Positions 8,871 to 59,970 of a DNA stretch of 64,000 nt are shown piece after piece. The stretch is from Raphanus sativus. Lineage: Eukaryota > Streptophyta > Magnoliopsida > Brassicales > Brassicaceae. The DNA lies in NCBI RefSeq assembly GCF_000801105.2, contig NC_079513.1:23404273-23468272 (forward strand), given 5' to 3'. The translations under genes were made by a program, and so were the position numbers. The notes under the pieces are model-generated. The model had not been told where the DNA came from, ran no database searches, and saw nothing but the letters and a program-made list of their open reading frames with translations. Position 1 is the stretch's first letter; the number at the start of each line of letters is the position of its first letter.

Positions 8871-10069
8871 TTTTTTGTCTTGTTTGTGTTTCACAGAATG
8901 TTTGCTTAGAAGAAGAAGATAATGATTATATAAAAGGAAGGATTGAGGACCGATGGTTTTGAGTTGGGAGTGTGGGACCGGATATGTCCGTTTTTGTTGA
9001 ATTTCTGACTGTATGTGATATGCTCACCTTGAATGTTGTCCCTCTCACACTTAGTGACTTGCAGTAGTGGCTGAATTTTCTTCTTTTTTTAGGTAAAATG
9101 TAGTAGCTGAACGTTTCTTCTCCAATCTCAATTTTTGGTCACCATTGTTTTGTATTTTTTGTGTTTCACAAAATCTCTGTTTGAAAGGAAAGATTGAGAA
9201 CAAATGGTACATGACTCACTCTCTCTCAGACACACAACCAAAAACTTAGTGACTTGTCATAGTTGAATTTTTCTTCTACGTTAATGACTTGTCGTAGTTG
9301 ATTTGGGAAGAGATTTTTTTGTGTCAACATCGTTCAACTAAATCATATCAATTTTAACCAAATTTTGAATCAAACTAATCAAATTATAAATGAAATTTCG
9401 ATCCGAACTAACCACCAAAAGAACTGAGATTTTCCAGGTTTTAATTGATTTAAATAAAAAATCTAACCAAAACTAAAAATTCAATAAAATTGATATAATT
9501 TTCACAGAATCGGGCTGAATTATTTTTAGTGCAATTCGGTACAGTTATAAACAAACCGAACCAAATTACCTTTACGTTCAGGTCTATTTCAATGACCTGG
9601 TCAACCGTTCCAGACCAAAATCTTACTGTACAGTGGAGGTGTGGGTTAAAAAGACATGGTCGCAGTAAAATGAGAATAAGAATTCAAATTTGGCAACTTG
9701 ACAATCAATTCTATCATCCCTCGTGACTCTTTTCTTTTTCTGTGCAGCTCTTTCTCAACTAGGCCTTCTCTGTCTCAGCATCCAAGGAAAAAGAAAAGCT
9801 TAAAGGACAAGCATTCTTTTTTACTTTCTCGGAAAACCAAAACAGACAAAACTCTGGCTCCAAGACAAAAGTTTTTTTTTTTGTCACCAAACCAAGACAA
9901 AAGTTTAAAAAATAAAAATAGGCAGAGAACTTGAATGAACAATAGACATTTTGATTTAATGTAACATACAAAATAATCAATAATTCGGATCTTCTTCTGA
10001 ATCCTTATATTTACATTCTTGAATGATGAACGAACAAACAAACAAAAAATAAACATATAATCATCATCA
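8871..10069. other. Intergenic region between RING gene and dioxygenase copy 4
   Basis: No gene is supported. The part nearest copy 4 is its promoter. About 9060-9120 holds an old approximate duplication around a T-tract. About 9590-9990 is the partner of 6540-7030. The A-tract type insertion at 9860-9906 is listed separately. Confidence 0.6.
9860..9906 (-). repeat. T-tract micro-insertion flanked by 15 bp direct repeats
   Basis: CCAAGACAAAAGTTT occurs at 9860-9874 and again at 9892-9906, separated by 17 bases made of eight T followed by GTCACCAAA. The homologous sequence near 6955-6990 has a single CCAAG and no insert, so it is the empty site. Confidence 0.75.
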
Positions 10070-11254
10070 TTAATGAAGAACTGAAGAATCTCTGTTACTT
10101 CTGCTTCGCCCAAAGTACCTTCTCAGCACTGAATTCGACCGATCCATAACCCTAGTTTCTACTTCACTGTCTAAATCCAGATGACTCGAAGAAGACGAAA
10201 CAGCACGGTTTGGTCTCACTCTCCTCATCAACGACACCATCCCACGAACCATCCGTCTCAATCTCCCTCCCGCGCCAGAGCCACCACCACCGTTGCTACT
10301 ACTACCTGATTCAACTGTCCCATTAGCTCTAACCCACGAGATCCGTCTAGGACCGTCACTATTACCACCAATCCCACCACCGTCCATTTCCGTCAACACA
10401 ACCGGCAACACTCTCTCCCCTTCTCTCATCGCCGCGTTAAACCTCCCCACCGCGAATCCCCCTCCGGGGAGTCTCCATATCGTCATCCCCACGGGACTAT
10501 TATCACCTTCCTCGCCATTAGACTCCGAAGGCAGCTCAAAACGGCACACAGGGCACGAGTTCCGTATCGACAGCCACGGAACGATACAGTCCTCGTGAAA
10601 AATATGCTTACAAGGCATCTCACGCGCCTCGGTCTCCCTTTCGAAGACCTCAGTGCACACAGCGCAATTAACCTCCGCGCCTACGTGGCAATCACCGATT
10701 TCAACTCTCGGCAAAGACTCAATCGCCGATTTGGACGCGGGCGGGTTCCCGGATCTACCGAGTCCAACCCCCGAGGCGTCGAACTGACTTAACTGCTCGA
10801 GCAACCGCTCGAATCCCGATCCCATCAAAATCTCCGATACTGAATCGGGAAGAGGTCTGAGACCTAATCCGGATCCGTCGTCGTAGTAAAACTCGAACGC
10901 GCGTCGTCGTCGATCTCTAGCCTCTTCTTCTTCTCCATCGTCTCTATCTCCGGCTCCTCCTTGGAGAACGATGACTGGATTGAATGAAGGATTGTGACGG
11001 TCGGATCTCCGGCGTCTGATTATAGATCTGCGGTTGTTGATGATCGATCTTACTTCGGCGGAAGGTGGGGGAGTTAATTCGGTTGCGGCGGCGGAGGAGG
11101 AGGGATCGGTGATCTGTTCGATGAAACCGCCGTCGCAGTGAGGGCAAGAGACGCTGACGGTGGTTATCTGTTCGGGTTCAGTCCAGACGCTGACGAATCG
11201 CGTGCAGCTGTAACACCAATACGACGACGTTATCGGCGTTGACGGGGACGGCAT
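10070..11254 (-). CDS. RDUF2: RING-H2 E3 ubiquitin ligase with DUF1117, RDUF type
   Basis: A single-exon gene of 394 residues, typical for this family. The N terminus has a zinc-ribbon (WCYSCTRFV... and a second CPHCDGGF pair, about residues 12-45). A central RING-H2 domain runs from about residue 196 to 240, with CAVC, CKHIFHEDC and CPVC. The C-terminal third matches the DUF1117 region of RDUF1/RDUF2 and ends in basic, serine-rich tracts. Such proteins pass ubiquitin from an E2 to substrates, and RDUF1/2 act in ABA and drought responses in Arabidopsis. The position between the dioxygenase array and UGT76E matches At5g59550 (RDUF2). Low-complexity acidic (about 105-117) and glycine/serine stretches are present. 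Antisense open frames at 10293-10792 are shadows of this GC-rich exon. Confidence 0.9.
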   Translation of the reverse strand: MPSPSTPITSSYWCYSCTRFVSVWTEPEQITTVSVSCPHCDGGFIEQITDPSSSAAATELTPPPSAEVRSIINNRRSIIRRRRSDRHNPSFNPVIVLQGGAGDRDDGEEEEARDRRRRAFEFYYDDGSGLGLRPLPDSVSEILMGSGFERLLEQLSQFDASGVGLGRSGNPPASKSAIESLPRVEIGDCHVGAEVNCAVCTEVFERETEAREMPCKHIFHEDCIVPWLSIRNSCPVCRFELPSESNGEEGDNSPVGMTIWRLPGGGFAVGRFNAAMREGERVLPVVLTEMDGGGIGGNSDGPRRISWVRANGTVESGSSSNGGGGSGAGGRLRRMVRGMVSLMRRVRPNRAVSSSSSHLDLDSEVETRVMDRSNSVLRRYFGRSRSNRDSSVLH

Positions 11255-58800: not shown

Positions 58801-59970
58801 TACACTATTCACATTGGAACCCAAAAAATATGAGAAAGTCTGATCCGATCATAGAGTTTAACGTACTGAACTGGAATCGAACTGAATCTAGCCGTATAAA
58901 TATTGGTTATAAATGTTATATGTGTGTGGATCTTGTGTGCTTGCCTTAATCTGGCGTGAGTCGGTATTGTGGAACAAAGAGCTTGATGGATCCTAACAAG
59001 CTACCCCAAACCACTTGTTTCATGGTCATTCATCTAATCTATATATAACCTATTTTGAATTATTCTTGGCATGCATATCATAAACTATACATATATTTTA
59101 ACCATAGCCCTACTGTTATTGTTTTTCTCTACATACTTTTGAAGATAAATTTCTCATTTTATCCGTGACAACATATATAATATTAATCAAGGAAAGTCCC
59201 GTGTACGTGAATACATTACTAGCTAATATACTACTCCCACTACTTATACATTAAAGTTTTGAGTTTCATGACTTCATCACGACATGAAATTTATCGCGAC
59301 TATGCACACATCTAACACAAGAATAACACGTACTTACACAGAGCTAAGTATTGTAGGTATTTTATACATGCAGGTAAAAACCTTCCTTGTATACGCACCG
59401 TTTGACTTTGATTTAGCAATAGTGAGTTGAATGAAATTACGCATCTCACAAAACATTGCTTCTAGAAACTGTCATTGAATGTTATTTGTATTGAAAAACT
59501 TGTTCAAATAAATATAACTCGTATATTTTGAAGACCAAAATGAATTTTATTTTAAAACGGCTGATGTCTAGGGAATATGGGATGAGATATGAATTATTTT
59601 GGAATACATCTAGTACAAGGTGTGAATGTTGGACCTTCCGTTTCGGCGACGTCATGTTTACGAATATTTAATTCACCAAGAACGTCTTTGGTCCTCTTTT
59701 TTTTTTAAAGTACTGTTTTGTTTCATGAGTATTTTCATGAGTATATTCAACTAAATCACTCTTGTTTCATTTTGGGTTATGGTTGTTATGTGAGATAATA
59801 ATTACCATAATCGAGTGCACACAGTTAACCAGCTAAAACATATCGCTGATTACCCTCTATAATAAAATTGTTAAATAACTTCTCTTATTTGATCCAAAAA
59901 AAAAACTTCTCTTAACGTATGCACCCCCAAAAAAGTACTTCTCTCAACAGTAGTTCAAAAAAGAAAAAAA
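55893..59970. other. Gene-poor region right of EXO70
   Basis: The first about 200 bp are the EXO70 promoter. The remainder is AT-rich and shows no gene, RNA gene or recognised element. About 57640-57720 and 57820-57900 repeat an AATCAACCGACAATC..TTAACTAAAA..AACGTGATGT motif, a diverged duplication of about 170 bp spacing. A GAAGA run lies at 59983-60006. Confidence 0.55.
59877..59914 (+). repeat. A-tract micro-insertion flanked by 11 bp direct repeats
   Basis: AACTTCTCTTA occurs at 59877-59887 and 59904-59914. The 16-base insert is TTTGATCC followed by eight A. Confidence 0.75.

What the first reader, a model, noticed from the sequence alone, without database searches (positions are those of the whole stretch)
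9860..59914. A recurrent class of A-tract micro-insertions with long target-site-like duplications
At least twelve places share one layout: a perfect or near-perfect direct repeat of 10-18 bp surrounds a spacer of about 3-38 nt that ends in an A-run (plus orientation: 11916, 19479, 19555, 33466, 33967, 40333, 42912, 45949, 52159, 59877) or starts with a T-run (minus orientation: 9860, 35420, 37849). In the plus cases the duplicated target nearly always begins with AA/AAA after a T (for example TTAAAAG, TTAAACA), as for L1-type endonuclease nicking at TT/AAAA. Duplication length and A-tail fit target-primed reverse transcription, yet the cargo is only a few bases. I infer that they are ultra-truncated LINE/SINE products, or a repair process that uses A-rich RNA or DNA as filler. 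One per about 5 kb would make them a notable source of small insertions in introns and promoters.
Basis: partly seen in the sequence, partly recalled or inferred. Interest (0 to 1): 0.75.

Follow-up and report, generated by a model that had tools for sequence, protein, structure and literature searches.

The report
Tiny A-tailed retroposed insertions in radish
A stretch of radish DNA carries many roughly 30-letter insertions that look like aborted copies of the tail ends of cellular RNAs, pasted in by machinery like that of jumping genes; duplicated stretches that lack the insert show that several of them arrived as single clean events.

Summary
The window is Raphanus-like nuclear DNA. Nine sites have the strict layout (target duplication, short cargo, A-tail abutting copy 2) against none in mirror layout; two more are symmetric tandems. 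Markov controls average 0.05-0.75. A neighbouring 200 kb has 33 layout against 8 mirror hits. Five spaced 10-kb stretches elsewhere have none, so density varies. Of 11 insertions tested against a local duplicate, 5 are missing there with one target copy left (3 exact at the junction, 2 with 4-6 extra nt), 2 are shared, 3 undecidable, 1 a false positive. Cargo is short (4-13 nt in 16 of 25), T-rich, with C before the tail in 20 of 24, resembling a plant mRNA cleavage site. Duplications start with AA in 24 of 27. Repeat pairs 90-7000 bp apart show no such excess in the window. Best reading: L1-type target-primed reverse transcription of poly(A) RNA that stops after about 12-24 nt. Enzyme, template and genome-wide extent are not shown. 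Repair filler and slippage fit poorly.

The parts
9860..9906 (-). Micro-insertion: duplication AAACTTTTGTCTTGG x2, cargo TTTGGTGAC, A-run 11 (including target As)
   Evidence: in-window paralogue at about 6.9 kb is better fitted by the empty version, 106 vs 101, with a 19-nt indel close by
11916..11968 (+). Irregular member: 13-bp repeat; spacer holds A7 that does not abut copy 2
   Evidence: paralogue at about 14.6 kb lacks the insert
19477..19535 (+). Micro-insertion: duplication AACAATATAACCTAACAT x2, cargo AAATTGCC, A17
19552..19625 (+). Tandem array of ATGATAAAATTAGATT units; not counted as a member
   Evidence: fits layout and mirror alike
33466..33512 (+). Micro-insertion: duplication AAACTTATGAGATT x2, cargo AGAAAAAGTTTC, A10
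   Evidence: also appears as a mirror hit in the looser A5+ scan
33967..34008 (+). 20-bp tandem duplication with A8; symmetric, ambiguous
   Evidence: paralogue at about 40.7 kb has one copy
35420..35468 (-). Micro-insertion: duplication AGATTCTGATGACAAAAT x2, cargo TGCTCC, A8
37849..37901 (-). Micro-insertion: duplication GGGAAGCTCAAGTTGT x2, cargo GTTC, A7-G-A9 tail; in the part of the RLK gene that corresponds to the intron start at 42912
   Evidence: paralogues do not favour an empty site, the filled version scores higher in both comparisons
40333..40386 (+). Micro-insertion: duplication AAACAAAAGCATTAGG x2, cargo TCTGAGTTTC, A6-C-A8 tail
42912..42953 (+). Irregular member just after a likely GTAAG splice donor of an RLK gene: 10-bp repeat, A10 next to copy 1 and A5 inside the spacer
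   Evidence: paralogue at 29.9 kb has a single target copy
45949..45997 (+). Micro-insertion: duplication AAATATAATTCGAATTT x2, cargo GTTGCCC, A11
52159..52228 (+). Longest strict member, 160 bp downstream of the HSP20 gene: duplication AAACGAACATTTCTAT x2, 33-nt cargo with an internal GAGTTC repeat, A8
59877..59914 (+). Micro-insertion: duplication AACTTCTCTTA x2, cargo TTTGATCC, A10

Best explanation
Each strict site is the product of one abortive target-primed reverse transcription (TPRT) event. An L1-type endonuclease nicks a T-rich strand so that the duplicated top strand begins AA(A). The freed T-rich 3' end primes on the A-tail of a cellular poly(A) RNA. The reverse transcriptase copies the tail and a few nt (often 4-13) of the body, then stops. 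Second-strand cleavage 11-20 nt away and repair leave a duplication, the stub of cargo, the A-tail and the second duplication: about 30 bp gained. Shown: layout, strand asymmetry, AA target start, cargo composition, single-event gain in several cases. Inferred: RNA template, LINE enzyme, premature stop as the cause of the small size, and mRNA as the main template class.
For: Layout vs mirror 9:0 in the window and 33:8 in the neighbouring 200 kb, against Markov means of 0.2-1.3. Empty sites in local duplicates: 5 of 11 events tested; at three (96244, 112634, 78073) the joined flanks match the empty copy without a gap at the junction, 100%, 95.8% and 97.5% identical over 118-121 nt, and at two (77592, 16747) the empty copy has 6 and 4 extra nt beside the target. 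Within the window 3 of 5 sites with a paralogue show a single target copy. Duplications of 11-20 bp. AA start in 24 of 27 events whose non-A core alone is at least 11 bp; random insertion points give about 0.24. Base before the A-run: C in 17 of 25 new events vs 196 of 655 other A-runs, p = 1.3e-4, a test prompted by the window and run on other DNA. In 19 C-ending cargos T is 0.52 vs 0.32 expected at the five preceding positions, p = 2e-4, A depleted; plant poly(A) sites are described as a YA dinucleotide in a very U-rich region (PMC4117952, passages). Arabidopsis Sadhu retroposons show T/A-start targets, 7-16 bp duplications and clean empty sites (PMC2848041, passages and section 8).
Against: No source RNA identified for any cargo. 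T before the nick is weak in the replication set (10 of 25). Longer A-tailed copies, expected from ordinary LINE/SINE/mRNA TPRT, show no such excess: window 1:1, 1:2, 4:5 layout to mirror at 90-400, 400-1500, 1500-7000 bp; 200 kb 10:6, 11:8, 48:45; so a premature stop has to be added. C before A is stronger than a plain Y|A rule suggests (T in only 2 of 24). Five 10-kb stretches elsewhere had none. One of the 25 counted events (J 101152) is a false positive, and three tested ones are undecidable. At 37849 the paralogues favour the filled version. With A5+ runs and mismatches allowed the asymmetry falls to 19:8.
Confidence: 0.74

Rival explanations
1. Patch-type double-strand-break repair: two offset nicks with overhangs, fill-in (giving the duplication), and end joining with untemplated or captured A-rich filler; no reverse transcription.
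For: Direct repeats without a flagged A-run also occur here: 14 of 23 of at least 13 bp, among them tandem arrays and the two symmetric sites 19552 and 33967. Small tandem duplications at breaks are an established repair outcome (PMC8355091, passages; the rice study of Vaughn and Bennetzen was seen only as a reference title there and is not held).
Against: Filler should have no preferred side: 9:0 and 33:8. It does not predict T-rich...C|A cargo or AA-starting targets. Only 1 of 9 window cargos of 6 nt or more shares 7 nt or more with 300 bp of flank, and that one is A-rich.
Confidence: 0.1
2. A sub-case of TPRT: the cargos are extreme 5' truncations of specific SINE or LINE families rather than of mRNAs (not exclusive of the best explanation's mechanism).
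For: Brassicaceae SINEs end in (A)n and L1-clade LINEs are the main LINEs of flowering plants (PMC3747384, passages). A LINE-1 stub of only 130 bp is reported in Brassica rapa, though without a duplication and with a 40-bp deletion (PMC10368883, passages). TTTTGACC recurs before an A5 at one other place and is commoner than base composition predicts (33 vs 12.2), as is TTTGGTGAC (9 vs 2.1).
Against: The cargos do not share one 3' end (one search list). Of 13 cargos tried, 11 precede an A-run only at their own site and one only there and at its local duplicate. No excess of long copies in the window; four strict B-box hits in 264 kb, none with an A-tail and duplication.
Confidence: 0.2
3. A sub-case of TPRT: the template is not a long mRNA cut short but a very short oligoadenylated RNA (a decay or tRNA fragment), which would explain the narrow size directly.
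For: Cargo plus A-run is 12-24 nt in 18 of 25. Short A-runs of 6-17. CC before A in several cargos resembles a CCA end (one search list).
Against: CC in a minority of the listed cargos; T-rich composition fits cleavage sites better. In human, no convincing sign was found that truncated 5S/U2 RNAs acquire oligo(A) and are retroposed (PMC5322556, passages and section 16).
Confidence: 0.12
4. Replication slippage or expansion of pre-existing A-tracts and tandem repeats.
For: Explains 19552 and possibly 33967.
Against: At 96244, 112634 and 78073 the empty copy lacks cargo, tail and second target copy at once; repeats are spaced by new sequence; asymmetry.
Confidence: 0.04

Closest known systems
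Sadhu retroposons and SINEs of Arabidopsis (non-autonomous, thought to be LINE-mobilised)
   Same: Poly(A) end, 7-18 bp duplications that begin with As, T favoured before them, clean empty sites between strains (PMC2848041)
   Different: Full-length Sadhu elements are about 900 bp and recognisable; here the body is mostly 4-13 nt and differs from site to site
L1-like retrocopies of mRNAs in dicots
   Same: TTAAAA-like target, poly(A) tail, duplications (PMC4838847)
   Different: Those are recognisable gene copies; these stubs are too short for homology to name
5'-truncated human L1/Alu/mRNA insertions
   Same: Duplication length, TT/AAAA preference, truncation from the 5' side (PMC2912911)
   Different: That catalogue took only insertions of 50-10,000 bp, so a 30-bp class lay outside it
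Tailless retropseudogenes of therian mammals
   Same: Short L1-driven by-products with duplications (PMC5322556)
   Different: They lack the oligo(A) tail and keep a recognisable RNA body (30 nt minimum in that screen)
Patch-mediated tandem duplications (recalled; title only seen)
   Same: Short direct repeats around a break, sometimes with filler
   Different: No expected A-tail on one side, no endonuclease target preference

Membership tests
L1-type TPRT insertion | Target-site duplication of about 7-20 bp | tested here: met
   11-20 bp in 25 unique non-symmetric events (scan floor 11); 11-18 bp in the nine window events
L1-type TPRT insertion | A-tail at the 3' end only | tested here: met
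   9:0; 33:8 raw; of the 8 mirror hits 2 are symmetric, 3 are copies of one locus that is also a layout hit, 3 are others
L1-type TPRT insertion | Duplication begins with As | tested here: met
   24 of 27 start AA vs about 0.24
L1-type TPRT insertion | T before the nick (TT/AAAA) | tested here: inconclusive
   6 of 9 T|AA in the window; 9 of 25 in the 200 kb
L1-type TPRT insertion | Single-event gain with an empty site | tested here: met
   of 11 tested: 3 exact at the junction, 2 with one target copy but 4-6 extra nt, 2 shared, 3 undecidable, 1 false positive
L1-type TPRT insertion | Identifiable RNA template | tested here: inconclusive
   No source found for 13 cargos within the 314 kb held; the whole-genome lookup did not complete
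L1-type TPRT insertion | Made by a LINE reverse transcriptase | not testable with these tools
   needs an assay
SINE | Pol III A and B boxes and a family body | tested here: not met
   Cargos are mostly 4-13 nt, too short to hold boxes; strict B-box hits are tRNA-like or unrelated; ARAGORN finds no tRNA in the window
Patch-mediated tandem duplication | No strand preference of filler (my expectation, recalled) | tested here: not met

The most novel reading that the evidence does not exclude
In this genome the commonest outcome of LINE-type target priming is a self-limited stub of about 20 nt copied from the 3' ends of many different poly(A) RNAs. These roughly 30-bp insertions outnumber recognisable retroposons in gene-rich DNA and supply a notable share of its long A-tracts (10 of 49 A8+ runs in the window, one of them the ambiguous 33967, and 19 of 241 in the neighbouring 200 kb, duplicates included, lie in such sites).
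Probability: 0.4. Interest if true: 0.75.

Novelty: new variant of a known kind. Interest (0 to 1): 0.62.

Why it matters
Repeat annotation cannot name such events, and they fall below the 50-bp floor of the L1 catalogue I saw (PMC2912911). If general, they are a steady source of roughly 30-bp insertions, A-tracts and polarised presence/absence markers in introns and promoters, and a record of how often LINE endonucleases cut without making a full copy.

Tried and rejected
Slippage: rejected for the exact empty sites. Local templating of cargo: 1 A-rich match of 9. Ordinary SINE/LINE copies nearby: long repeat pairs with A-tails equal the mirror control in the window; an earlier looser scan gave 10 vs 1-9 in ten shuffles, by my reading mostly in-window paralogues. 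A fixed total insert length: rejected, the spread (5.3) equals that of independent parts (5.0; 26 events). Rfam gave only a snoRNA, ARAGORN nothing. Two viral-contig scans for plant relatives found none. Dropped before counts: local duplicate copies (33 to 27) and 2 symmetric tandems (27 to 25); cargos outside 4-16 nt in the composition table. J 101152 stays in the 25 although one search shows it to be false. J 100766 and 5547 had partial or repeat hits and were not tested for an empty site.
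Full report
Where this is. The Exo70 gene at 54039-55901 is 98% identical to Raphanus sativus protein P0001, and the genome search places the window in a 433-Mb assembly at G000:C3:23404273-23468272. 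Pfam supports dioxygenase, RING, UGT, PUF, malectin-like, kinase, HSP20 and Exo70 genes among 10 ORFs scanned (one ORF had no hit). The match to the Arabidopsis At5g595xx-597xx block is from recall.

Is it there? Every listed place holds the repeat. Defined strictly (A-run of at least 6 abutting the second copy, either strand; duplication of at least 9, 10), the window has 11 sites in layout and 2 in mirror; those two (19552, 33967) read alike both ways, so the asymmetric count is 9 to 0. Locally fitted Markov sequences average 0.16-0.75 (maximum 4 in 100). Looser scans are less sharp: 12 vs 9 with a crude classification, 19:8, 13:4 and 9:1 for A5+, A6+ and A8+ with mismatches allowed.

Second stretch. 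I fetched the 200 kb that end about 4 kb upstream of the window, after the layout, AA and C tests had been made on the window. Result: 33 layout vs 8 mirror, against Markov means of 0.2 (order 3) and 1.3 (order 5), maximum 5 in 40. Local duplicates reduce 33 to 27 unique, 25 without symmetric tandems. The 8 mirror hits comprise 2 symmetric sites, 3 copies of one locus that is also a layout hit, and 3 others, so 6 unique. Five spaced 10-kb stretches of C1 and C2, picked by hand, gave 0 and 0, against about 6 expected at the local rate; the class is unevenly spread and one per 5 kb cannot be extrapolated.

Single events. The 200 kb hold local duplicates. Of 27 unique events I tested 11 against a second copy. 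At J 96244 (L018), 112634 (L020) and 78073 (L016) the joined flanks match the other copy with no gap at the junction, at 100%, 95.8% and 97.5% identity over 121, 118 and 120 nt (the first is shown). At 77592 (L016) and 16747 (L010) the other copy has one target copy but 6 and 4 extra nt beside it. Two events are in both copies (74815, 139784), three are undecidable (62226, 175028, 129255) and one is not an insertion of this kind (101152). Two further events occur in three copies that are 99-100% identical. Inside the window, paralogues show a single target copy at 11916, 33967 and 42912, weakly at 9860 (106 vs 101), and at 37849 the filled version scores higher. The three clear window cases are the irregular or symmetric ones.

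Anatomy. In the 25 events of the 200 kb, duplications are 11-20 bp (11 was the floor), A-runs 6-16, cargo 1-9 nt in 16, and cargo plus A-run 12-24 nt in 18. Duplications begin with AA in 24 of 27 events of both stretches whose non-A core alone reaches 11 bp; a random insertion point, allowing for the match running into preceding As, gives 0.244. T before the nick is clear in the window (6 of 9 T|AA, p = 2e-5) but not in the 200 kb (T in 10 of 25). The base before the tail is C in 8 of 9 window events (p = 0.002, found after looking) and in 17 of 25 new events vs 196 of 655 other A-runs (p = 1.3e-4). Among 24 events of both stretches with 4-16 nt cargo, C is 20; in the 19 C-ending cargos of 6 nt or more, the five positions before the C are 52% T vs 32% (p = 2e-4) and A-poor. 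Plant poly(A) sites are described as a YA dinucleotide in a very U-rich region (PMC4117952, passages). That C so exceeds T is not explained by this.

What is missing. In the window, repeat pairs with an A-run at 90-400, 400-1500 and 1500-7000 bp show 1:1, 1:2 and 4:5 layout to mirror; in the 200 kb 10:6, 11:8 and 48:45. Ordinary TPRT products of mRNA, SINE or LINE should fill that range. Hence the added claim that synthesis usually stops early. No cargo could be traced: of 13 tried in the 314 kb held, 11 precede an A-run only at their own site, one also at its local duplicate, and TTTTGACC at one other place.

Known relatives. Sadhu retroposons share target, duplication and empty sites (PMC2848041, passages and section 8). 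Relaxed poly(A) recognition by plant L1 is proposed in PMC3747384 (passages). L1-like mRNA retrocopies exist in dicots (PMC4838847, passages). A 130-bp LINE-1 stub, without a duplication, is known in Brassica rapa (PMC10368883, passages). A human/chimpanzee catalogue used only insertions of 50-10,000 bp (PMC2912911, passages). 'Works like TPRT' is well supported; membership in a named element family is not claimed.

Verdict. A real, one-sided class in this part of the radish genome, with single-event gain shown for several members; most likely abortive L1-type TPRT on poly(A) RNA (0.74). Template and enzyme remain inferred because the whole-genome search answered only once. On re-checking I corrected the exactness of the empty sites (3 of 5), the 12-24 nt count (18 of 25) and the cargo recurrences; none moved the odds.

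Noticed in passing
window 47443-47523 (-): snoR35 C/D-box snoRNA, 69.6 bits against a gathering score of 40
   Followed up: no
L018 near 6244-6503 and L019 near 8650-9060: A roughly 241-bp sequence bounded by AACGATATCTCATC and ending in A7 looks like a retroposed element; in one of two nearly identical copies a micro-insertion has landed at its A-tail/duplication junction
   Followed up: partly
L017-L019: Three copies, 99-100% identical around two shared micro-insertions (about 88-89, 95 and 107-108 kb of the joined 200 kb)
   Followed up: partly
window 29273-29321 and 23721-23860: Short tandem arrays of CCCGTCCCGCTTTGA-type and CCGAACC-type units
   Followed up: no
window 40813-40900, 22549-22618, 17638-17670: Spaced direct repeats (29, 18, 13 bp) without A-runs, candidates for break-repair duplications
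   Followed up: no
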